Below, in pieces: positions 1,686 to 26,273 of a stretch of 32,511 bases of DNA. The stretch is from Acetobacteraceae bacterium (GTDB lineage: Bacteria; Pseudomonadota; Alphaproteobacteria; Acetobacterales; Acetobacteraceae). Where the stretch lies: positions 1 to 32,511 of the forward strand of contig JANXTL010000115.1 in the NCBI GenBank assembly GCA_025352375.1, given 5' to 3'. How positions within the stretch are numbered: position 1 is the stretch's first letter; each line of letters opens with the position of its first letter. The position numbers were made by a program, and so were the translations under genes. Below the pieces are notes generated by a model, which was not told where the DNA came from, searched no databases, and worked only from the letters and a program-made list of their open reading frames with translations.

Positions 1686-2891
1686 TCAAACCGGCAAATA
1701 CGGCACCGGCACGAAGAACCGTCCGCCCACCGTCTTCAGCGCGTTGTTCGGACTGTCCATCGCCTTCGACCGCAACGCGATCAGTAGTTGCCCGGCGACC
1801 GTTTCCCGCCAGAACCACCGGTCGATTTGCCCAGCCGATGGCGCGGGACCGTCGGCCTGCGCGGCCTCCCCGTACATGGCCTTGATGTCGTCGCACAGGA
1901 AGCGCAACGCCAACGCGGGGGTGTCGTGCATCGCCACGGTCGGCAGTTCGCCGCGCAGGAACGCCGTCGCGAATTCCGGCCAATCCTGCAAGGATTGCCC
2001 CGACAGCCCAACCGTAGAACGCCCAAACCGCGCCTCGAAACGTTCCCAGGCCGGCAGGACCAGTTCGAGTTCATCGCGAAACGCCGACTCCCAGGCCTCC
2101 GCATCGTCGAATGCGCGCGGCGCCGGCACCTTCACGCCGGGCTCCCAACCCGAGCGATCGACATGCGAGGGATTATCGTCCGGGAAATGCTCCAGGATCA
2201 CCGGTCCGTCCGTCCGCTCCAGCAAGCGCAGGGCTTGCAGCAGCACGCGCCGTTGGAAGTCCGAATCATTCGGCTCGCCCAGCGGGCGCCCGAGCATGAA
2301 GGGCACCATCAACGCCCGCGGTGGACGGGTGTTCTCGACCTGGGGTAGCACCAAAGCCAAAACCGTCGTCGGCAGGCCGCGTTCTTCCAGCATATGTGCC
2401 ATCGCGCTCACGGCGCGGGTGCACAGCGGTCAAACCGGGGCGAGGACGACGGCGTCGACGTGGTCGGCCTTGAAGGCAGCGGCGATGAAGTCGGCGGACT
2501 CAACCATCGCAGCCGGGTCGGTGGACCCCATCACGGTGTAGTGCGTGTTCGCCACGCTGCCGATCAATCCGTCGATCGCGAGGTGCTTCAGACGCTCGAT
2601 CGGGTAGACCACGTCGATATCCCGCTGGTACCCCGCTCGGTCGAAATTGATCGATACATGGCTGACCAGAATGTCGTTGCTATCCCAGCTACGCTGCAAC
2701 GGGCGGCACTCGCCGGATCCGACCGGGAACGGCGCATCCCCGCGCTGGATCAGTGCGGCGCTGCTGACGATTGCGACCCGGCGTTTGGATAGCGGCGGGC
2801 CGGATACAAAGGGAGTCGTCTCGAAGGCAGGGCAAGGGATATTTGCCACCGCCGTTCGCGTTGGTTCCGGTATGTCTTCAAGGCGTGCCAT
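1686..2891 (-). CDS. GrdB/PrdB-family selenoprotein (in-frame TGA = Sec154)
   Basis: A 401-residue protein of the glycine/sarcosine/betaine/D-proline reductase selenoprotein B family, read through TGA at 2430-2432. Upstream of the TGA are family hallmarks: VAIVSSAALIQRGDAPF (about residues 38-54), then a stretch with YPIERLKHL, DGLIGSVA and HYTVMG. Residue 154 would be selenocysteine in U-P-L-C-T-R, a UxxC redox motif with Cys157. The frame then continues for about 245 residues. A stem-loop right after the TGA (2425-2395) fits a bacterial SECIS. The start ATG at 2891 follows GGGAGAA. GrdB and PrdB form the substrate-activating subunits of Stickland reductases, but this relative lies beside two D-2-hydroxyacid dehydrogenases and no other reductase subunit, so its reaction is unknown. 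The alternative, a nonsense-mutated pseudogene, is less likely given the motif and stem-loop. Confidence 0.82.
2395..2425 (-). promoter_or_regulatory. Predicted bacterial SECIS element
   Basis: Four bases after the TGA the mRNA forms UGUGC (2425-2421), ACC, CGCGC (2417-2413), loop CGUGA (2412-2408), GCGCG (2407-2403), AUG, GCACA (2399-2395). This gives two perfectly complementary 5-bp stems separated by a 3x3 internal loop. The apical loop begins 17 bases after the UGA and has G as its second base, the spacing and loop feature expected for SelB recognition. It supports reading the TGA as selenocysteine. Confidence 0.7.
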
Positions 2892-2912: not shown

Positions 2913-3899
2913 TTACATCATCCGCTCATCTGGCCCGACCAGATACAGCGGCATCTCCCCAGCCAATGCTCGGCGAATATTCGCCACCGCCCGCCGCAGC
3001 CCCGTTTCCCCCGTGCCCGGCACGGACGCCGAATTATGCGGGGAACCGATAACGTTCGGCAGCGTCAGGAACGGGAAATCCATGCGGAAAATCCCGTGCC
3101 GCACCGGCTCGATCCACCAGGCGTCGATACAAGCCTGGAATTTCGGATGCGCTTGCAGGTGGGCGAACAAGGCGGCCTCATCGACGATCTCCCCCCGCGC
3201 CAGATTGGCCAGGATGGCGTCCGGTTTCATGAGCGCCAGTTCCCGCGCCCCGATCCAATTCTTCGTCGCGGGCGTCAGCGGGGTCGAGATCACCAGCACG
3301 TCCGCCGCTGCCAGCATCGTATCGAGATCGGCCGGTGTCCCGATCCAGTCGGTGGGTTCGTCGGATGCGCCACGCCGGTTGATCGCGTGGATCTTCATCC
3401 CGAGCGCCCGCATCAGCCGCGCGGTCGCCACCCCGATGCCGCCGAAGCCCAGGATCCCGCAAACGCCACCGGTCAAAGATCGGTTGCGCTTACCCTGGTT
3501 GAATTCGCCGCGGATCAGCGCGTTGTGCTCGACCAGCAGCCGTTTCGCCGCCGCCAGCACCATGGCCAGCGCGTGCTCCGCCATCGGTTCGGCGTAAGCG
3601 CCACCGTTGGAGGCAATCGGCACATGCGGCGAAAACATCTTCAGCGGCACGAAATCGACGCCGGCATTAATGAACTGGATCAGTTTGACGCCATCGAGCA
3701 AAGCCGCCTCGTGCGGCCGCAGTTCTTTCGCCGTGTTACGGGCCAGCAGCACAGTGGCGCTCCGCAACGCCGCCGCCCGCGTCCGATCGTCATCGATGTC
3801 GGCGAGGTAAACGACCTCCGCCGCACCCTGAAGCGCGTCTGTAATGAAGGGCCGCCCCTTTTCGTCCTGCGGGAATGTAACGACCACAGAATCGGTCAT
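2913..3899 (-). CDS. D-2-hydroxyacid dehydrogenase
   Basis: A 328-residue NAD(P)-dependent dehydrogenase of the D-isomer-specific 2-hydroxyacid family. The cofactor motif GFGGIG is mid-protein. The catalytic Arg lies in NLARGEIVDE, the Glu in WIEP and the His in GSPHNSA near the C-terminus. It would interconvert a 2-keto acid and a D-2-hydroxy acid in the cytoplasm; the substrate cannot be read from sequence. The ATG at 3899 overlaps the stop of the upstream dehydrogenase (TGATG), implying translational coupling. A GTG three codons earlier (3908) is possible. It is 21 bases from the downstream selenoprotein gene, so the three genes are probably one transcript. Confidence 0.88.
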   Translation of the reverse strand: MTDSVVVTFPQDEKGRPFITDALQGAAEVVYLADIDDDRTRAAALRSATVLLARNTAKELRPHEAALLDGVKLIQFINAGVDFVPLKMFSPHVPIASNGGAYAEPMAEHALAMVLAAAKRLLVEHNALIRGEFNQGKRNRSLTGGVCGILGFGGIGVATARLMRALGMKIHAINRRGASDEPTDWIGTPADLDTMLAAADVLVISTPLTPATKNWIGARELALMKPDAILANLARGEIVDEAALFAHLQAHPKFQACIDAWWIEPVRHGIFRMDFPFLTLPNVIGSPHNSASVPGTGETGLRRAVANIRRALAGEMPLYLVGPDERMM

Positions 3900-4882
3900 C
3901 AGAACCACGTCGCTTTATTAACAACGTTACGCAATTCCCGCCCCGCCGCGAAGGCGCGGCAGTTATCCTCCACGATCTCGTAACGGCGGTCGTTCAGATA
4001 TGGGCCGTGACCCGCCATGTGGGGTGTCAGAAGCACGTTTGGCATGGTCCATAACGGGTGGTCGGACGGCAGCGGTTCGATCTCGTAAACATCCAGCGCC
4101 GCCCCGGCGATCACGCCGGCGTTCAGCGCCGCCACCAGATCGTCCAGCTTCGTCGTCATGCCCCGTCCGATATTGATGAAGAACGCGGACTTCTTCATGC
4201 GGCCGAACCGGGCGGCGTTGAAAAACCCCTCGGTCGCAGGGGTATGCGGCACGGTCAAAATAACGAAATCGGCGCGCGGCAGCAGCTCATCCAGCGCTTC
4301 AGGCTTGTGCAGCTCCGCCACGCCCTCGGGCGGCGCGGTACGGCGCGCATCGGTGGCCAGCACTGTGATCCCAAACGCCGCGAGCAGCCGAGCGGTCTCG
4401 GCCCCGATGCCGCCGACGCCGACGATCAGAGCGGTGGCTTCCGGTAAATGCACAACGTTACCGTCTTCCTGGCCCGATTTCTTCCATTCCCGCCGCAGTT
4501 GCTGGGGAATGAACACCTGCAGACCGCGGGCGAAGGCCAGCACGAATGCCATGATATGGGCGCTGATGTGGTCGTTGAAGATCTCCCGGAAATTGGTGAC
4601 CGCCAGTGGATGCTCGATCAATTCCGAAAAATAATACCCCGCCGCCGGGGCGGCCTGAGGCGCCTGCAGCCAACGGAGCTTCTTGGCCGCGCCCAGCAAA
4701 GCGGGATTCAGCCAGCCGAACGCGCCCTCCGCATCCACGATTTCACGAGCAGCGGTTTCGGCGTCCTCGGCGATTACCACACGGGCTTCCGGCACGGATT
4801 CCGCCAGGCGCTTGCCCCAGGCGCGGGTGGTGTCGGACTGCGGCGGCAGCATCACGAACTTGAACGAATTGGCACCTGGCAT
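3899..4882 (-). CDS. D-2-hydroxyacid dehydrogenase, first gene of the selenoprotein operon
   Basis: A 327-residue member of the same D-2-hydroxyacid dehydrogenase family as the next gene, but clearly diverged from it. The NAD-binding motif is GVGGIG. Catalytic residues are present: Arg in NIGRGM, Glu in YEIEPLP, His in TPHMAGH. The ATG at 4882 is preceded by AAGGA at a good distance. As the first gene of the operon it probably shares a promoter with the second dehydrogenase and the GrdB-like selenoprotein. Two paralogous reductases in tandem suggest sequential or stereochemically related oxidation or reduction of hydroxy/keto acids that also concern the selenoprotein. That link rests on gene order alone. 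Confidence 0.88.
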   Translation of the reverse strand: MPGANSFKFVMLPPQSDTTRAWGKRLAESVPEARVVIAEDAETAAREIVDAEGAFGWLNPALLGAAKKLRWLQAPQAAPAAGYYFSELIEHPLAVTNFREIFNDHISAHIMAFVLAFARGLQVFIPQQLRREWKKSGQEDGNVVHLPEATALIVGVGGIGAETARLLAAFGITVLATDARRTAPPEGVAELHKPEALDELLPRADFVILTVPHTPATEGFFNAARFGRMKKSAFFINIGRGMTTKLDDLVAALNAGVIAGAALDVYEIEPLPSDHPLWTMPNVLLTPHMAGHGPYLNDRRYEIVEDNCRAFAAGRELRNVVNKATWF

Positions 4883-5683: not shown

Positions 5684-5814
5684 GAAGGTAAGCACGTTTC
5701 GTTTGCCCGCGCCATCGGCCGGGCCCATGCGGCCGCGATACAGACGATACAAATCCGCCCTGACGCGTCTGCCCTCATGTGGCATGCTGGCCCCTTGGAC
5801 CAGGACCGCTAGCC

Positions 5815-8800
5815 ATGCCCACCGTTCGCTCATTCGTTAGCGCCGACATCGCCGCCGCCCGACGCCCGCCGCCGCCGCCAGAGCAGGAAGCCGATATCCT
5901 GAGGGAAATCATCCTGAGCCTGCCGAACGCGATCGCCTATGTCGATCCCGACGACAGCGTGCGCCTCGCCAATGACGCCTATCTGGCCGCGATGGGCTGC
6001 GACCGCGACACCCTCGCGCGGCTCACCACAACCGAATCCCGCCTGCGCTGGCAGTTCGAAACCGGTCGACAGCCGCTGACCCATCCGACCGTCGAAGCAA
6101 GCGTCGCAAGCGCCCTCAGTCGCCAACAGGTCGGTGACGGCAGCCCGGCCATACGGGAATTCCTGGGGCGTATCTACGAACACCGCTTCGTCGCCCTGCC
6201 CGATGCGCGGACGATGACCGTCTATCACGACATCACCGCGTTGAAGAAAAAGGAAAACGAACTGCGGGAAACCCTCGCCTACGCCGCGGCGATGAACGAT
6301 GTGCTCAAGGTCATCAGCCGTTCCGCTTTCGATCTGCCGACGATCTTGCAAACGGTCGTCGCCAAGGCAGCCGAGCTCTGCGGGGCCGAAAGTGGCATCC
6401 TGTACCGCTACCAGAATGACGCCTGCCGATTCGAGGCCGGATATAACACGCCGCCTGGATATGAAGACATCGTGCGCGGCCGCCCGGTCTTCGCCAATAA
6501 CCGCACAGTCACCGGGCGGGCGTTGGTGGAGCGGCGCGCGGTGCAGATCGTCGACGCGCTCGCTGACCCCGAATACGTCGGCAAAGACGAAGCACGCGCC
6601 GGTTCCGTCCGCACCCTGCTCGGCGTTCCCCTGCTGCGCGACGGCGAGCCAATCTGCGTCGTGGCTTTGGCCCGGTCCTCGGTGGAACCGTTCAGCGAAC
6701 GACAGATCGAAATGGTGACCAGCTTCGCCGATCAGGCAGCGATCGCCATCGAAAACGCCCGCCTGCTAGAGGAGCTGCGTCGCGCTCGGGAAGAAGCCGA
6801 ACGGGAACGAGCCTTGATGCGGTCCGTCCTGGATAATGTCACCGACGGCATGGCATTGTATGAGGCCAATGGCGACATCGCGTTGTGGAACAATGCGATG
6901 TACGACATCAGCGGCTACCCGAAGGATGTGTTTGCGAAATTTCGCAACATACGCGAAAGCCTGCGTTGGCAGGTCGAGAATGGAATCATACCCCGCGAGC
7001 ACGACACCGCCGAAGCCGATGTCGAAGCGGCGGTGAACCGCTTTCACAATGCCGACACGGTAAAACTCACCCGGAAGCGGCCCAACGGGCGCTGGGTCGA
7101 TATCCGCTGGTCCTCGCTGCCGGATGGCCGCCGGCTGGTAACCCATCACGATGTCACCGACCTCAAGCAACGTGAATTGGAGCTGCGGCAAGCCCACGAC
7201 GCCACCGAACAATCGCGTGCCACCATGCAGGTGGTCCTGGACAACATGACCGACGGCGTGACGCTGTGCGAAGCCGACGGTACCATCATCCAGTCCAACG
7301 ACGCGGTTTATGCCATCAACGGCATTCCACGAGACGGCGTCGCCCTCCCTTATCCAGCACGCACGCCGGACGAGAAAGAAGCGGACGAGCAGCAGCATAT
7401 GGCGCTGTTCCTCAAAGGCGACGCTTATCGGCCCGCGGTTCTGCGCCCCAATGGCCGTTGGGTCGAGCGCTGGTTGCGACCGCTCGCGGACGGCCGCCGG
7501 CTGATGATCCACCGCGATGTGACGGATCTAAAACAACAAGAACTCGTTCTGACGCAACGCACGGGCGACTTGCAGGATGCGCTGGAATTCCAATCCGCCA
7601 TCAGCGAGACCCTGCGGATCATCAGCCGGTCGGCGTACGATCTGGACAGCGTTCTGACCGCGGTTCTGCATCGGGCCCGAGACCTGTGTCAGGCCGATCA
7701 GGCGATCGTGTACCGCTATCAGGATGGCGTGGGCCGGTATGGCGTCGGTATCTGTCAGTCGCCTGAATATGAGGCGCTGGAACGCGCATCCGCCATCGCG
7801 CCGGGCGAGGGCACCTTGGTCGGACGGGCGTTGTTGACCGGCCGGCCGGCCACCATCGCCGACGCCTGGACCGACCCCGCCTACGAGGCCCCCGAACACG
7901 CCCGGATCGGCAACCTCCGCTCCATGTTAGGCGTCCCGCTGCTGCGCGACGGGGTCCCGATCGGCGTGATTGCCCTGGCGCGTTTCAAAGTCGAGCCGTT
8001 CACCGACCGGCAAATCGAGCGCGTGGCGACCTTCGGCGATCAGGTCGCCATCGCGATCGAAACCGCCCGGCTGTTCGAGGAGCAACAGGCGGCTCGCCAG
8101 GCCGTCGAACGGGAACGCGCCCTTATGCAGGCCATCCTGGGCAACGTGACAGATGGCATGGGCCTGATCGAAGCCAATGGCGACATCGCGCTGTGGAACG
8201 ATGCGATGTACGATATCAATAGCTTCCCGCGCGATGTTTTCGCCGGGTTCCATAACATCGGCCAGACATTTCAATGGCAGGCCGATAATGGACACGATCC
8301 GGGCAGCGACGCCGATGCGCATGCGAACGCGGCCTATTATATGGATTTGTTCAAAGCCGGAGCGCCGTATACGCGAACATCGCAACGTCCCAATGGGCGC
8401 TGGGTCGACGCACGTTGGCGGGTGTTGCCGGACGGACGCCGTCTGTTCACCCATCGCGATATCACCGAACTGAAAGAACGCGAAATCGAGTTGCAACAGG
8501 CCCGCGACGCGACCGAACAAATCCGTACGCTGATGGAAACGGTCCTGGAGAACATGACCGATGGCGTCATCCTATGGGACCGGGACGGCGAATGGCGCTA
8601 CGCCAACAACGCGTTCTGCGTCATTCAACAAAGCTCCCGCGAACGGTTGGCCGCGTTGCGCCGCTTCGACACGATGATGGAGGCTTTGCTACAGCGCGGT
8701 CTGATCGACGAAGCGTTCCAGGTGGCCGCCAACGAGCGGTACAGGCGCGCGGACGGGGACCCGACGCAGCGCCCGACACACGACGGGCGCTGGGCCGAAG

Positions 8801-10416
8801 GCGCGTTCTACCGGCTCGCCGATGGCAGCACCCTTGGCGTGTTCCGCGATATCACCGCCCTGAAGCAACAGGAGCTTGGGCTCGCCGAGGAGCGCGACGC
8901 GGCCGAACGGGCCCGCGCGGACGCGGAAGCCGCCAATCAGGCGAAATCCACGTTCCTCGCGACCATGAGCCACGAAATCCGTACCCCCATGAACGGCGTT
9001 TTGGGCATGATGGACGTACTCGAGCACCAAAACATGAGACAGGATCAGCAAAATACCATTGCTGTCATGCGGGATTCGGCGGTATCTCTCATGCGCATCA
9101 TCGACGATGTGCTGGATTTCTCAAAAATCGAAGCCGGCCGGATGGAGCTGGAGGAAACGCCCTTCTCCCTGACCGATATTGTTATGAATACAATCCGTAC
9201 TTCGCGGGCGCAGGCTGCGGCGAAGGGCATCCGGATGGAGGCGGCGATCGATCCTGGATCGGCGGATTCCCTGATTGGCGACCCCACACGGGTCAGGCAA
9301 ATCCTGTTCAACCTGTTGGGCAACGCGGTGAAGTTCACCGAACATGGCAGCATTCGCATGCGTGCCGGCACGGAGCCGCTGGACGGTAGCCGCCACCGTG
9401 TCACCCTTACGGTCGCGGATACCGGCATAGGCATGGATAGGGAACAACAATCCCGTCTGTTCCAGCCCTTCGCGCAGGCCGACAGCTCCACCACCCGCCG
9501 CTTCGGCGGTACCGGCCTCGGCCTGTCGATCGTGCGCCGTCTGGCCCAGCTCATGGGCGGCGATGTGACCGCCGAAAGCACCCCCGACGAGGGGTCGGTG
9601 TTCACCGTCACCCTCTATTTACGGGCCGCCCCGAATGTCGAATGGACGGCGCAACCGGATCGCTCGGTGGCGCGGCTCGCGGCGAATGGCGGCCGCCTGC
9701 TGGTCGTCGACGACCACCCGATAAACCGAGAGGTTCTGGTCCGGCAACTTGGCCTTCTGGGCCTGCAAGCCGATACCGCCGAGGATGGAATCGCCGCCCT
9801 GGCCCTGTGGGCACCGGGCCGGTACGCTGCGGTGCTGGCCGACATACACATGCCCCGAATGGACGGTTACGACCTGACGGCGGAAATCCGAACCCGGGAG
9901 CACACGGCCGGCGCGGCCCGCACCCCGATCGTCTCGGTCACCGCCAATGCCATGCGAGGAGAGGAAGAACGCTGCCTCGCCGCCGGCATGGACGCCTACA
10001 TCGCCAAGCCCGTCAGCCTGCCCCGCCTGCGGGAAGTCCTGGTTCGTTGGGTCGAAGTCGGGCAGCCGGAAGCAGCCAAGGTCCCACCGCCGCCGAAGCC
10101 TGGCATCGACGGCGAACGCCTGAAGGATTGGGTGGGTGACGATCCTCAGGCGATCGAGTCGCTGCTCCGTCGCTTCATCGATAGCACCCGGGAGTCGGCG
10201 CGCGACATCGATACGGCCTTGGAAAGCGGGGATTTATTGGCGGCAGCCGCCGCGGCCCATAAAATGAAGGGCGCATCGCTCGCGGTCGGCGCGGGGACTT
10301 TGGCCGAAATCTGCAGCCGGATCGAAGCCGCCGCCAAAGCGGGTCAGCACAGTGTCTGCGTCAGCGCGATGGACGCGCTGGGTGCCGAGATGCGATCGAT
10401 CCGGGCTTCGGTCTAA
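5815..10416 (+). CDS. Hybrid sensor histidine kinase with PAS/GAF arrays, REC and HPt
   Basis: A 1533-residue soluble sensor kinase with no obvious membrane segment. Approximate domain order: PAS 30-143, GAF 165-320, PAS 335-450, PAS 470-570, GAF 600-755, PAS 770-886, PAS 905-1013, HisKA 1043-1110 with His1053 ([13 protein letters not shown]), HATPase 1155-1268 ([25 protein letters not shown]), REC 1295-1415 (VVDDHPIN, phospho-Asp1343 in [11 protein letters not shown]), HPt 1440-1530 with His1482 (HKMKGAS). The GAF-PAS-PAS block is internally duplicated with an offset of about 436 residues. It would pass phosphate His-Asp-His to a response regulator, most simply the divergent OmpR-type neighbour. 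The ATG at 5815 is preferred over 5779, which adds 12 low-complexity residues. The ligand is unknown. Confidence 0.92.
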
Positions 10417-19742: not shown

Positions 19743-20486
19743 ATGACCCGCCAAGATCTGCGCCGCCAGGGCGAGGAAACCCTCCAGCGCCTGTTCGGCA
19801 CCACCCAGCAACAACCCGGTTTCGCCAACCTGCTGACCGAACCAGTGTTCGGCGGCGTGTGGAATCGCCCCGGCCTGGCGCTGCCGGACCGCATGCTGTG
19901 CGTCATCGCCGCCCTCGGGACCGGCCCGCGGTTGCGCCCGCTGCGCCGTCATATCGTCGCCGGGTTGGAACTGGGTCTGACGCCCGCTTCTATCCGTGAA
20001 ATCCTCGTGCAATGCGCCCTGTACGCCGGGTTCGCGGCCGCCGAGGAAACCTTGGCTCTGGCCGCCGAGGTGTTCGCCGACCGCGGCATCCCCTTCCCCG
20101 CCGACCCGCCGGAAGACGCCTCCCTGGAGGAACTCACCGCTCGTGGTGCCGAACTGATGCGTACGTTGCACGGCGCACGGGCCAGCCAGGGTTACGCGGC
20201 GCCGGACAACCCCACGACCGGGGCGCTGTACCCCACCGCCATCCAATACGGTTATGGCGAGATCTGGTTCCGCCCCGGCCTGGAACGCCGCCAGCGCGCG
20301 CTGGTCGCCGTGGCCGGCTTCACCGCGCTGCGGCTGCCGGAGCAAGTGGGAAAATTCGGACAGTCCGCGTTGAACGTGGGGCTGACCAAGACCGAGGTGA
20401 TCGAGGCCATCATCCAGACCGCGCCATACACCGGGTTTCCGCCGGCGTTGAACGCGCTGGGGGCACTCAGCACCGCGTTCGCCTAA
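19743..20486 (+). CDS. Carboxymuconolactone decarboxylase family protein, two domains
   Basis: A 247-residue protein with two CMD-like helical domains (about residues 20-110 and 135-245). The first contains VQCALYAGFAAAEETL, with a Cys at the active-site position; the second has IIQTAPYTGFPPALNAL, where Cys is absent. CMD proteins include decarboxylases and AhpD-type peroxidases, and the CxxC of AhpD is missing. GGAGGAACC lies just before the ATG. It follows an SDR and converges with the Bug-type gene, overlapping by four bases. The reaction is unknown. Confidence 0.85.
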   Translation: MTRQDLRRQGEETLQRLFGTTQQQPGFANLLTEPVFGGVWNRPGLALPDRMLCVIAALGTGPRLRPLRRHIVAGLELGLTPASIREILVQCALYAGFAAAEETLALAAEVFADRGIPFPADPPEDASLEELTARGAELMRTLHGARASQGYAAPDNPTTGALYPTAIQYGYGEIWFRPGLERRQRALVAVAGFTALRLPEQVGKFGQSALNVGLTKTEVIEAIIQTAPYTGFPPALNALGALSTAFA

Positions 20487-21460
20487 CCCCCGCTGGATTG
20501 CAGCCAAGGCTCCGTCGCCCAAAGCTTGCCGAGGTCGACGCGCTCGCGTTCGACCAGGGCGGTCCATTCGGGACCGGCCATCCAGGTTGGCAGGAAGCCA
20601 CTGGCGTCGGCCAACGCCAGAAAATCCGGGTCGGCGACGATGCCCTTCAGCGCTGCGATCAATCTGCCCGCCATCTCGTCCCCAATCCCAACCGGCGTCG
20701 CCAGACCGCGACGGATGGAGGCTGACAGGTTGACCCCAGCCTCCAGCAGGATTGGCAGATCGGGTAACACCCCGAAGCGGTTGCGGGCCGCGAGGCCAAG
20801 CCCCACCAGCTGCCGGTCTCGCAGCCCGGCGATCGCGTCCGAAAGGCCCAGCGCGGCGGCCGACACGTTGCCGGCCAGCACCGCCCGAGCGGCGGCGGCG
20901 GCGGAGGGAAAGGTCACCACGTTGAGTCGAGTTTGGGTCACAATCTGCAACCGCACCACCGCCAGATGCGGCGGGCTGCCCGGCGGCGGCGTGCCCAGCG
21001 GAACCGCGTCCTGATCGGCGCCGGCGCGCTGGATCATGTCCTGCACGGACTCCAGCGGTGCGGATGCCGGGGAGACGAAGGCTATCGGCTCCCGCTCCAC
21101 CGCACCCAGCAAGCGCAGGCGCTGCATAAGGGAGGCATCGTGCCGGTCGATCATGCGGGCGGCCAGGGTGGGCGTCGCGACCCAGCCCAGGGTCAGGCTG
21201 CGTGACGGTGCGTCCATCAGGGCTCGGATGGCGTTCATCCCCGCCTCCCCCGGCACGTTATGGACGGCGAAATCGAGCCCCGGCATGAACCGGGACAAAA
21301 ACGGGACGAACGCGCGCGCACTGAGGTCGTAGCCGGACCCTTCGGTGGCACCCACCAGAACGGAGACGGTATAAGGCCTGGGATTGACCCGCACGGCGCG
21401 CGCGGGGCGCACCGACAAAAGCGCGACCGAACCGGACAATACGGTTCGGCGCGAAATCAC
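20483..21460 (-). CDS. Bug/TctC-type substrate-binding protein
   Basis: A 325-residue exported protein of the tripartite tricarboxylate transporter binding-protein family. The N-terminus has a twin-arginine-like signal (SRRTVLSG, then a hydrophobic stretch, likely cut ARA|VRV). The mature part carries the family layout (GSGYDLSARA, NVPGEAGMNAIRAL, GTPPPGSPPHLAV). Such proteins bind carboxylates in the periplasm. No TctA/TctB membrane partner is in the window, as is common for Bug paralogues. The start GTG at 21460 overlaps the secF stop (GTGA), so it is translated with secDF. Confidence 0.85.
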   Translation of the reverse strand: MISRRTVLSGSVALLSVRPARAVRVNPRPYTVSVLVGATEGSGYDLSARAFVPFLSRFMPGLDFAVHNVPGEAGMNAIRALMDAPSRSLTLGWVATPTLAARMIDRHDASLMQRLRLLGAVEREPIAFVSPASAPLESVQDMIQRAGADQDAVPLGTPPPGSPPHLAVVRLQIVTQTRLNVVTFPSAAAAARAVLAGNVSAAALGLSDAIAGLRDRQLVGLGLAARNRFGVLPDLPILLEAGVNLSASIRRGLATPVGIGDEMAGRLIAALKGIVADPDFLALADASGFLPTWMAGPEWTALVERERVDLGKLWATEPWLQSSGG

Positions 21461-24149: not shown

Positions 24150-26273
24150 TCAGGCGGCGCGTTTGTATTGCATGCAGCCCTGGGCGATCGCGATCTCGAG
24201 GATCGCGGGTCCGTCCAAGGCCGGCAACGGCAGTACCGCGCCGCCGCCGGTCCAGCGCCGGAGCAGATCACCCTCTCGCTCCACCGCCCACCAACCCTGT
24301 GTCAGGCTGGGATGATCCAGCGGAATGTCCAGCACATCCGAACCCTGGTTCAGCCTGACCCGTTCCACATAGACCCCCAGGCATCGGCGATCTTCCAGCC
24401 ATGGTCGCGAGACCGTAGGCGTCGCGGCGCGGGATACGATGCGGACATCCGTGACGCCGGTTTGCAGCACGAACTGATAATGCCCGTTCCGAATGCTGAG
24501 CGGTCGCAATCTCCGTCCGTCGGCGACGATGACCAGGTCCGCATCGTTCGTTACGTCCGCCGCCGGAACCGGCTGGCCCAAAATCGCGGCACGATCCGCC
24601 AGGCGTTGCCACTCCGGCCGTACGCTGGCCGCATCCCAGACCAAGGGCACGCAGGACCCCACCGCTCGGTCGGGACAATCCGTTGCCGATGTCAAATCGG
24701 GATGCAGATGCAACGGCAAGTCCGCGTCGGCGAAGAAGCCCCGGTTTCCGGTATCGAGGTAGCTTTCGGCGGGGAGGCCCTCGGCCAACAAAATGGCGTG
24801 GGTATCGAGTTCGACGTGAAAATAATCCACCGAAGCGAGGCCGCGTTCGAACCGGATCGTTGTGCCGTTGACCAACTGACGGGCACAAATCAGCTTGCCG
24901 CCAACGAGAATTCCGTGGTCGGGGGAAACCATGAGATCGCGGTACGGCACATCGGCGGCGAAGGCATCGCGCTGGATAAGGACCGGTGCGACCGAATCCG
25001 GCCGGGGATGCGCGGTGAGATCGATCCGGCGATGGCCGATCCATTTCACCGGAACAAATGCGATACCGTCCGGCCCCTGCGTGGCGACCGGGTCGCCGGG
25101 CGCCAAGGCTTCAATCGCCGTTTCTCCGTCCGGTGTCGCGATCCGCGTGCCGCGGCAATAGCATAGGCTGTAACCAAGGACCTGTAGCACCTGTTGGTCG
25201 GTGGTTGTGATGAGACCCACCTGACCGATCGGACCGTCGGCGAACGCATCGTTATTGACCGTGCCGGCCCAGTCGGCCACGTCAGCGCCGTTGGCGACGG
25301 CGGTCGGCGTCTCGAAGAGTTGCGTAACCGTCGAGCCGTTATACGAGAAGTAGGAAGGTGCGTTGACGTTATAGCCGCTGACGAACGGCTCATCGCGCAC
25401 GCCCGCCGGCGCGCCGATCGGATTGGTGTCGAGTCCGTTGGCCGCCGTATACCGGAACATATCCAGGAGGGTATATTTGCCGCTGGTCGCATTTGCGCTG
25501 CGGCCAAGAACTTCCGAAATCTCGTGTTCGAGCGTACCGATTGCGTCGTTGTTGGTGGAGCCGACGCTCGATTGCGTCCAGGCCCAATTTTGAGATGTCG
25601 ATTTGTCCAGCCCAACCGACCCGCCAATGGGTATGCCGGACGTGTTAAAACCGAGCGCCGTCGCCTCCGCGGTTGCGATCGAAAAGACCGAACCGCCGGT
25701 AGGGTCGGTTGTCGGCAGCGAAGCGACGGCCGCGATCTGCACCGCCGACGTGGTCTCGGTTTTCACGACCTGGGTGTAGAGATCCGCGTAGGTCGTAGAG
25801 TACTGATACGTGCTGCTCTGGCCGCTTGCTCCCGCGGAGATGGGACTGCCGCCGGCCTCACCCCAGCCAAAAGCGATATTGACCGTGATCGGCGTGGAGA
25901 TCAGGTTCTGGAAGGCCTGAATGGCTGATTGGACCGCGGCGACGTAATTATTGTAGGTCGTTAGGTCGGATTGCTGGAGATTTGTGACAGAGGTGTCATA
26001 GGACGCCACGATTGTAATATGCGTGGCCAGGTTGGTACTGGTTGGGATCGGCGCCGACACCGATACGGTCGTTCCCGTCAATACCGCACCGGCCGACGTG
26101 TGCCCGGTCTGCTCCGACGCGACGAGCACCGAGGCATCCGCGATAACCGGGTCGCCGCCGTTCAAGCCCATTCCATGGTCGAGGTTCGGAAGCGACGAGT
26201 CTCCCGTGGTGTCATCGAGCTGGTTTCCCGATGCGTCGGTCAGGTTCCCGTGCCGATGCAGTAAATCGTTCAT
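24150..26273 (-). CDS. Metalloprotease-like protein with C-terminal Hint domain
   Basis: A 707-residue protein. Residues about 50-360 resemble the metalloprotease-like proteins often fused to Hint domains in Acetobacteraceae, with GTLEHEISEVLGR around H250-E251 and E254. The third ligand of a classical HExxH site is Glu here, so activity is uncertain. From C371/C373 (SLCYCRGTRIATPDG) a Hint domain begins, with VSPDHGILV further on, as in bacterial Hint_2 proteins that self-cleave at a Cys. No clear N-terminal signal peptide is visible, which suggests non-Sec export if secreted. RBS AAAAGGA precedes the ATG. It stands alone between secD and an SDR. Confidence 0.75.
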   Translation of the reverse strand: MNDLLHRHGNLTDASGNQLDDTTGDSSLPNLDHGMGLNGGDPVIADASVLVASEQTGHTSAGAVLTGTTVSVSAPIPTSTNLATHITIVASYDTSVTNLQQSDLTTYNNYVAAVQSAIQAFQNLISTPITVNIAFGWGEAGGSPISAGASGQSSTYQYSTTYADLYTQVVKTETTSAVQIAAVASLPTTDPTGGSVFSIATAEATALGFNTSGIPIGGSVGLDKSTSQNWAWTQSSVGSTNNDAIGTLEHEISEVLGRSANATSGKYTLLDMFRYTAANGLDTNPIGAPAGVRDEPFVSGYNVNAPSYFSYNGSTVTQLFETPTAVANGADVADWAGTVNNDAFADGPIGQVGLITTTDQQVLQVLGYSLCYCRGTRIATPDGETAIEALAPGDPVATQGPDGIAFVPVKWIGHRRIDLTAHPRPDSVAPVLIQRDAFAADVPYRDLMVSPDHGILVGGKLICARQLVNGTTIRFERGLASVDYFHVELDTHAILLAEGLPAESYLDTGNRGFFADADLPLHLHPDLTSATDCPDRAVGSCVPLVWDAASVRPEWQRLADRAAILGQPVPAADVTNDADLVIVADGRRLRPLSIRNGHYQFVLQTGVTDVRIVSRAATPTVSRPWLEDRRCLGVYVERVRLNQGSDVLDIPLDHPSLTQGWWAVEREGDLLRRWTGGGAVLPLPALDGPAILEIAIAQGCMQYKRAA

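What the first reader, a model, noticed from the sequence alone, without database searches (positions are those of the whole stretch)
1686..2891. Overlooked selenoprotein: GrdB/PrdB-like protein read through an in-frame TGA
Two minus-strand frames that look separate are in the same phase, divided only by TGA at 2430-2432. Family motifs of the glycine/betaine/D-proline reductase selenoprotein B group run up to the TGA, which falls in a U-P-L-C-T-R motif, where the family carries selenocysteine. Automatic callers would split or truncate it. Its presence in a non-Clostridial, apparently alphaproteobacterial genome suggests a role outside Stickland fermentation.
Basis: partly seen in the sequence, partly recalled or inferred. 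Interest (0 to 1): 0.85.

Follow-up and report, generated by a model that had tools for sequence, protein, structure and literature searches.

The report
Overlooked selenoprotein in lake bacteria
A gene that standard software would cut in two is very probably one selenium-containing enzyme, a distant relative of the clostridial proline/glycine reductases, and kin of it occur in many alphaproteobacteria, often next to the genes that insert selenium into proteins.

Summary
One minus-strand frame (1686-2891), interrupted only by TGA at 2430-2432, reads as 401 aa. The genome has tRNA-Sec, selA, selB and selD. The family occurs in 18 of 33 genomes of the genus, own included, and 32 of 384 others of the class. 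Of 55 rows read, own included, 52 have TGA at residue 154 and 3 have Cys. The TGA aligns with Sec of two annotated clostridial PrdB genes. selA is in 28 of 29 other TGA-form genomes outside the genus and 0 of 3 Cys-form genomes. tRNA-Sec lies in 13 of 34 class-wide loci. Codons 157-161 are unusually fixed, under a hairpin that fits the bacterial SECIS model.

It belongs to the PrdB/GrdB superfamily but is not canonical PrdB or GrdB: below NCBIfam cut-offs, no pyruvoyl-subunit match in the genome, about 170 extra C-terminal residues without Pfam match. Substrate unknown; most likely a UxxC reductase working without a pyruvoyl subunit. PrdB-like selenoproteins have been counted in marine metagenomes since 2005: a new variant of a known kind.

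The parts
1686..2891 (-). PrdB/GrdB-like selenoprotein gene, 401 aa with TGA read as Sec, terminal TGA at 1686-1688
   Evidence: PF07355 28.5 bits (cut-off 22), TIGR04483 92.5 bits (cut-off 300)
2430..2432 (-). in-frame TGA read as selenocysteine, residue 154
   Evidence: TGA in 52 of 55 rows, Cys in 3; aligned with Sec of annotated clostridial PrdB
2421..2423 (-). codon of Cys157, second residue of the UxxC motif
   Evidence: invariant in the 40-row alignment A2 and in the 8-row alignment A3
2402..2418 (-). putative bacterial SECIS hairpin; apical loop CGUGA begins 17 nt after the UGA; in the window itself 5 of the family's 6 pairs form
   Evidence: codon conservation at residues 157-161; 91.7% of cells paired over 38 sequences, 2 pairs with compensatory changes; fits the model quoted in PMC13188914
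1689..2198 (-). C-terminal region, residues 232-401, predicted largely helical, without Pfam match in the window protein, not present in the two clostridial PrdB compared
2913..3908 (-). D-2-hydroxyacid dehydrogenase family gene directly upstream, same strand
   Evidence: directly upstream in 3 other genomes of the genus and 1.2 kb upstream in a fourth
3899..4882 (-). second D-2-hydroxyacid dehydrogenase family gene, overlapping the previous one

Best explanation
The frame is one gene for a 401-residue selenoprotein. UGA 154 is decoded as selenocysteine by the host's SelA/SelB/SelC/SelD with the help of a hairpin just downstream. In the predicted model the Sec sits between a beta strand and a helix, in a UxxC motif shared with PrdB and GrdB. 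Shown by comparison: conservation of the UGA, Sec/Cys exchange, match of form with machinery, hairpin, synteny with sel genes. Inferred: the selenolate attacks a small carbonyl- or carboxylate-type substrate and reductively breaks a C-X bond, Cys157 resolves the intermediate as a selenenylsulfide, and a cellular thiol system re-reduces it, without the pyruvoyl subunit that PrdB and GrdB use. The confidence given is for the selenoprotein claim; for the inferred chemistry I would say about 0.35.
For: Sec machinery complete in the own genome. TGA at residue 154 in 20 of 20 own-genus-type rows and 32 of 35 others, Cys in 3 of 35; the 3 Cys forms are one clade (100/100) nested inside Sec forms. selA over cut-off in 28 of 29 TGA-form genomes outside the genus, 0 of 3 Cys-form genomes, 3 of 26 non-genus relatives without the family; Fisher p 8e-4 and 3e-11. 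tRNA-Sec gene in 13 of 34 class-wide loci (mean 12.6 kb), selA, selB, selD or tRNA-Sec in 14 of 34; a rough expectation for tRNA-Sec is 0.1 locus. Invariant residues 157-161 keep nearly one codon (pairwise codon identity 0.80-1.0; 55 other invariant columns 0.44 on average). Hairpin with compensatory changes that meets the bacterial SECIS rule read as a passage of PMC13188914. Alignment with Sec of annotated PrdB genes, shared H78, D84, D91, P97, C157, E169. No PF09338 match in the own genome although that model finds PrdA; no PrdA-like hit in 64 loci.
Against: No protein or RNA data. Two TGA-form genomes of the genus lack a selA match: G004 (89% complete) and G027 (100% complete, 920 contigs); within the genus selA is over cut-off in 16 of 18 genomes with the gene and 11 of 15 without, so there is no tight linkage there. 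G298 has the TGA form without selA; its contig is probably misbinned. Folding energy alone does not single out the region: mean percentile 0.23, 10 of 51 genes below 0.1. One hairpin pair (columns 17/29) is broken in 15 of 38 sequences, and two of the five measures do not exceed the shuffles (pairs with change on both sides 89/500, further pair types 330/500). Of the eight invariant columns at 155-168, three are not unusually fixed, and one distant column (S77, 0.83) is as fixed as some in the hairpin. One copy carries an extra in-frame TAG (L156) and one is split between frames (L133). No neighbour cluster lies in more than 6 of 53 loci, so the substrate cannot be read from context.
Confidence: 0.96

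Rival explanations
1. The TGA is a true stop; the gene is a broken or split pseudogene, or two separate genes.
For: Table-11 reading gives two ORFs; copies in L156 and L133 are damaged.
Against: The same TGA in 52 of 55 rows, in 15 families of the class, with both halves conserved; residues 155-231, downstream of it, are the best conserved of three segments (63% mean pairwise identity); the form follows selA presence outside the genus.
Confidence: 0.02
2. A canonical D-proline reductase PrdB or glycine reductase GrdB working in Stickland-type metabolism.
For: TIGR04483 E 2.6e-26, PF07355 over its cut-off, Sec aligned with clostridial PrdB.
Against: 92.5 bits against a PrdB cut-off of 300, 46-57 bits against GrdB-type cut-offs of 65-800; no PF09338 match in the own genome (its control genomes were silent, one search shows that the model finds PrdA); GrdA model also without match, control silent too; no prdA-like hit in 64 loci; extra C-terminal region.
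Confidence: 0.04
3. A general thiol-disulfide or peroxide-type redox protein using UxxC, rather than a C-X bond reductase.
For: UxxC is also the motif of thioredoxin-like selenoproteins (table passage of PMC1088965); glutathione-transferase-like genes, by my reading of their sequences, lie near some copies.
Against: No thioredoxin-family match in Pfam or NCBIfam; sequence belongs to the PrdB/GrdB superfamily; H78, D84, R85 and H117 invariant in 40 of 40 rows suggest a substrate pocket.
Confidence: 0.3

Closest known systems
PrdB, Sec subunit of clostridial D-proline reductase (TIGR04483)
   Same: Homologous core (residues 33-228), Sec in UxxC at the aligned position, shared H78, D84, D91, P97, E169
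   Different: Far below the family cut-off, about 170 extra C-terminal residues, no PrdA-type (PF09338) match in the genome or PrdA hit in 64 loci
GrdB/GrdF/GrdH, Sec subunits of glycine, sarcosine and betaine reductases (PF07355, TIGR01917, TIGR01918)
   Same: The C-terminal part of these models matches the core of the protein; PF07355 over its cut-off
   Different: No match to the N-terminal part (matches start at model position 204 or later); no GrdE-type match in the genome, no GrdA match either though that control was silent
'Proline reductase PrdB' selenoproteins of marine metagenomes (PMC1088965, PMC2398784)
   Same: UxxC selenoproteins outside clostridial cultures, 42 in the Sargasso Sea and 235 (filed under pfam07355) in the GOS set (passages)
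   Different: I could not tell whether those sequences include this 400-residue form
Shorter paralogue of about 312 aa in the same genus; two plasmid-borne relatives of it are named by NCBI 'glycine/sarcosine/betaine reductase selenoprotein B family protein'
   Same: Same core, NUPVCHQT or NCPVCHQT at the Sec site, 6 Sec and 27 Cys of 33 rows
   Different: Shorter tail; mostly Cys; 26-37% identity

Membership tests
bacterial selenoprotein | in-frame UGA aligned with Sec or Cys in homologues | tested here: met
bacterial selenoprotein | tRNA-Sec, selA, selB, selD in the genome | tested here: met
bacterial selenoprotein | SECIS-like hairpin just downstream (loop 3-9 nt, G in its first two positions, 16-37 nt from UGA) | tested here: met
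   loop CGUGA 17 nt from the UGA; rule from a passage of PMC13188914; folding energy alone not outstanding
bacterial selenoprotein | selenium in the full-length protein | not testable with these tools
   needs 75Se labelling or mass spectrometry
PrdB (TIGR04483 equivalog) | score over the curated cut-off of 300 bits | tested here: not met
   92.5 bits
PrdB / D-proline reductase | pyruvoyl partner PrdA (PF09338) in the genome | tested here: not met
   no match in the 98% complete own genome; the model recognises PrdA of L187 with 79 bits, but the tool's own control genomes were silent, so absence is likely, not proven
GrdB (PF07355 superfamily) | Pfam match over the gathering score | tested here: met
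   28.5 bits, cut-off 22; 40 of 40 family rows match at E up to 0.01
GrdB of glycine reductase (TIGR01917) | score over the curated cut-off of 602 bits | tested here: not met
   46.2 bits
GrdB of glycine reductase | GrdA (PF04723) in the genome | tested here: inconclusive
   no match, but no control genome rang
PrdB/GrdB | reduction of proline or of glycine-type amines | not testable with these tools
   needs enzyme assay

The most novel reading that the evidence does not exclude
This is a separate, unnamed family of selenoenzymes in Alphaproteobacteria: it works without a pyruvoyl subunit, carries its own extra C-terminal region, and is a main client that keeps the selenocysteine machinery in these genomes, travelling with the sel genes as one island and switching to Cys when the machinery is lost.
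Probability: 0.3. Interest if true: 0.75.

Novelty: new variant of a known kind. Interest (0 to 1): 0.55.

Why it matters
Passages in two papers describe selenocysteine in Alphaproteobacteria as serving formate dehydrogenase only or mainly (PMC1794560; PMC8124441). A PrdB/GrdB-type selenoprotein in 15 families of the class (18 with the Cys form), with a sel gene nearby in 14 of 34 loci, gives another reason why these genomes keep the machinery, and it marks an enzyme whose substrate is open. Table-11 gene calling splits such genes at the TGA, so the family is easily missed. One Sec-to-Cys clade without selA makes the value of Sec in this enzyme directly testable.

Tried and rejected
A first reading of the relatives ignored strand and gave nonsense; it was redone. 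Raw folding energy was tried as a SECIS test and did not single out the region; codon conservation and pair counting did better. Conserved neighbours were sought for a substrate: the two D-2-hydroxyacid dehydrogenase genes lie directly upstream in 3 other genomes of the genus and 1.2 kb upstream in a fourth, and another gene of that kind lies downstream in L137 and L138; elsewhere I saw transporters, CoA transferases, DUF3830-like and glutathione-transferase-like genes (names from my own reading of the sequences), none general. A copy outside the class was sought: of 398 genomes drawn from the phylum only the own genome had a full-length match; but that draw held many genomes of the own class, also without one, so it says little about other classes. 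Foldseek found no PDB match with E up to 0.001; VIA-align 2 gave middling Z, best 9.8 (rmsd 3.3, 133 aligned), mostly to LacI-type, sugar-binding and Rossmann-type domains for residues 32-243, which tells no function; the C-terminal region was not searched alone. Profile search of solved structures gave one hit at E 0.93, a designed protein. Rfam found nothing in the window at gathering scores. One of 40 rows touches the UGSC family weakly (E 0.0043); not followed. Papers: search listings with abstract starts and passages found by term were seen, no whole text. The searches that turned up no description of this family were made; they cover open PMC papers only.

Full report
Observation. The window's minus strand holds ORFs at 2430-2891 (153 aa) and 1686-2411 (241 aa). 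They share one phase; the only stop between them is TGA at 2430-2432. Read with TGA as U the frame gives 401 aa, U at 154, motif PVUPLCTRAV. The start ATG at 2891 lies 21 bases after the stop of a D-2-hydroxyacid dehydrogenase family gene, behind a GGGAG stretch.

Machinery. The own genome (5.1 Mb, 355 contigs, 98% complete) has a tRNA-Sec of 74.7 bits, called tRNA-SeC with anticodon TCA by ARAGORN, 18 bases after the selA frame (551 bits), selB (390 bits) and selD (300 bits, in a 744-codon open frame).

Relatives in the genus. Of 33 genomes of the genus, own included, 18 have a full-length copy. With two more records (L063, labelled Kuenenia but of own-genus type, and the partial L065) 20 rows were read: 20 of 20 have TGA at the same residue, none Cys. 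12 of 14 records found in the named collection are labelled Acetobacteraceae.

Relatives in the class. Alignment A1 (19 rows) was searched in 385 genomes drawn from the class, own included. 36 long matches lie in 33 genomes of 18 families, own included. I fetched and read the 35 others; a few are partial or damaged (L133, L153, L156). 32 of 35 have TGA in PVUPxCT or PIUPxCT, 3 have Cys in PVCPNCTR. L161 among them is the same contig as L063. So over both sets 52 of 55 rows are TGA (51 of 54 with that duplicate removed) and 3 are Cys; the TGA form is found in 15 families, the Cys form in 3 others. A tree of 53 rows puts the 3 Cys forms in one clade with full support inside the TGA forms, which suggests one Sec-to-Cys change.

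Form and machinery. selA is over its cut-off in 28 of 29 TGA-form genomes outside the genus and 0 of 3 Cys-form genomes. The exception G298 is the genome that holds the Kuenenia-labelled contig, probably misbinned. Of 26 relatives outside the genus that lack the family, 3 have selA. Inside the genus the link is loose: selA over cut-off in 16 of 18 genomes with the gene and 11 of 15 without; G004 and G027 have the TGA form and no selA match.

Synteny. In 34 class-wide loci from 31 genomes (427,071 bases) ARAGORN finds tRNA-Sec in 13, and tblastn with the own SelA, SelB and SelD raises the count of loci with a sel gene to 14. Roughly 0.1 locus with tRNA-Sec would be expected if the genes were placed at random. 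Sel-linked rows occur on several branches of the tree. In the own genome the gene is on another contig than selA, selB and selD.

RNA signal. Among 37 TGA-form rows, invariant residues 157-161 keep nearly one codon each (pairwise codon identity 0.80, 0.80, 0.94, 1.0, 0.80), against 0.44 on average over 55 invariant columns elsewhere; residues 155, 164 and 166 are not unusual and S77, far away, reaches 0.83 (L156 was left out for its extra TAG). These codons lie in a hairpin in columns 15-31 after the UGA: 91.7% of 228 cells paired, two pairs with compensatory change in 5 cells, a number that none of 500 shuffles and none of the slid versions reaches, while two other measures do not exceed the shuffles; RNAalifold predicts five of its six pairs by itself. 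The loop CGUGA starts 17 bases after the UGA with G at its second place followed by U, as the bacterial SECIS model quoted in PMC13188914 asks (passage). In the three Cys forms several of these codons differ, Arg159 CGC being kept. Folding energy alone was not outstanding.

What family. The read-through protein scores 28.5 bits with PF07355 (cut-off 22) and 92.5 bits with PrdB TIGR04483 (cut-off 300), 46-57 bits with GrdB-type models. Residues 161-401 alone show no Pfam match at E up to 0.1. U154 aligns with the in-frame TGA of two genes annotated prdB, in Peptoclostridium acidaminophilum and Terrisporobacter petrolearius. Shared by all 8 rows of that alignment: H78, D84, D91, P97, Sec/Cys154, C157, E169, G172, T175, P191, R192 among others. 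Across 40 family rows R63, H78, S80, D84, R85 and H117 are invariant too. A model from 19 rows (mean pLDDT 81.9, pTM 0.83) puts residue 154 between strand 147-151 and helix 155-170, and makes residues 264-391 largely helical.

Function. PrdB and GrdB work with a pyruvoyl subunit (established knowledge). PF09338, which finds PrdA of L187 with 79 bits, has no match in the own genome (control genomes silent); PrdA itself has no hit in 64 loci of 802 kb. So this protein probably does not use that partner. I propose a UxxC reductase that breaks a C-X bond of a substrate already activated, resolved by Cys157. That is inference; the neighbours do not give the substrate.

Prior knowledge. PrdB-like UxxC selenoproteins in marine metagenomes were counted in 2005 and 2008 (passages of PMC1088965 and PMC2398784). 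A 2006 comparison found fdhA as the only selenoprotein of the Sec-decoding alphaproteobacteria then known (passage of PMC1794560). My five paper searches turned up no description of this 400-residue family, but most subscription journals are not in that library. I therefore call it a new variant of a known kind.

Noticed in passing
221-243, 1547-1569, 1611-1633: A 23-base repeat with inverted arms in three exact copies (none expected by chance), two of them just downstream of the selenoprotein gene; a 22-base word that overlaps it also occurs at the very start of the own selD contig (L182), as if it were a dispersed element.
   Followed up: partly
L023, L041-L052, L067-L086: A shorter PrdB/GrdB-like paralogue occurs in Sec (6 of 33 rows) and Cys (27 of 33) forms, mostly within the same genus, and genome G009 has both.
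   Followed up: partly
24150-26273(-): A 707-aa protein with a Hint_2 domain (141 bits).
   Followed up: no
5779-10416(+): A 1545-aa hybrid histidine kinase with four PAS_7 and two GAF stretches, receiver and Hpt domains, next to a response regulator gene of OmpR type on the other strand.
   Followed up: no
20483-21460(-): A TctC-type solute receptor gene (52 bits, PF03401).
   Followed up: no
L063, L161: A contig in a genome labelled Candidatus Kuenenia carries an own-genus-type copy of the gene; probably a misbinned contig.
   Followed up: partly
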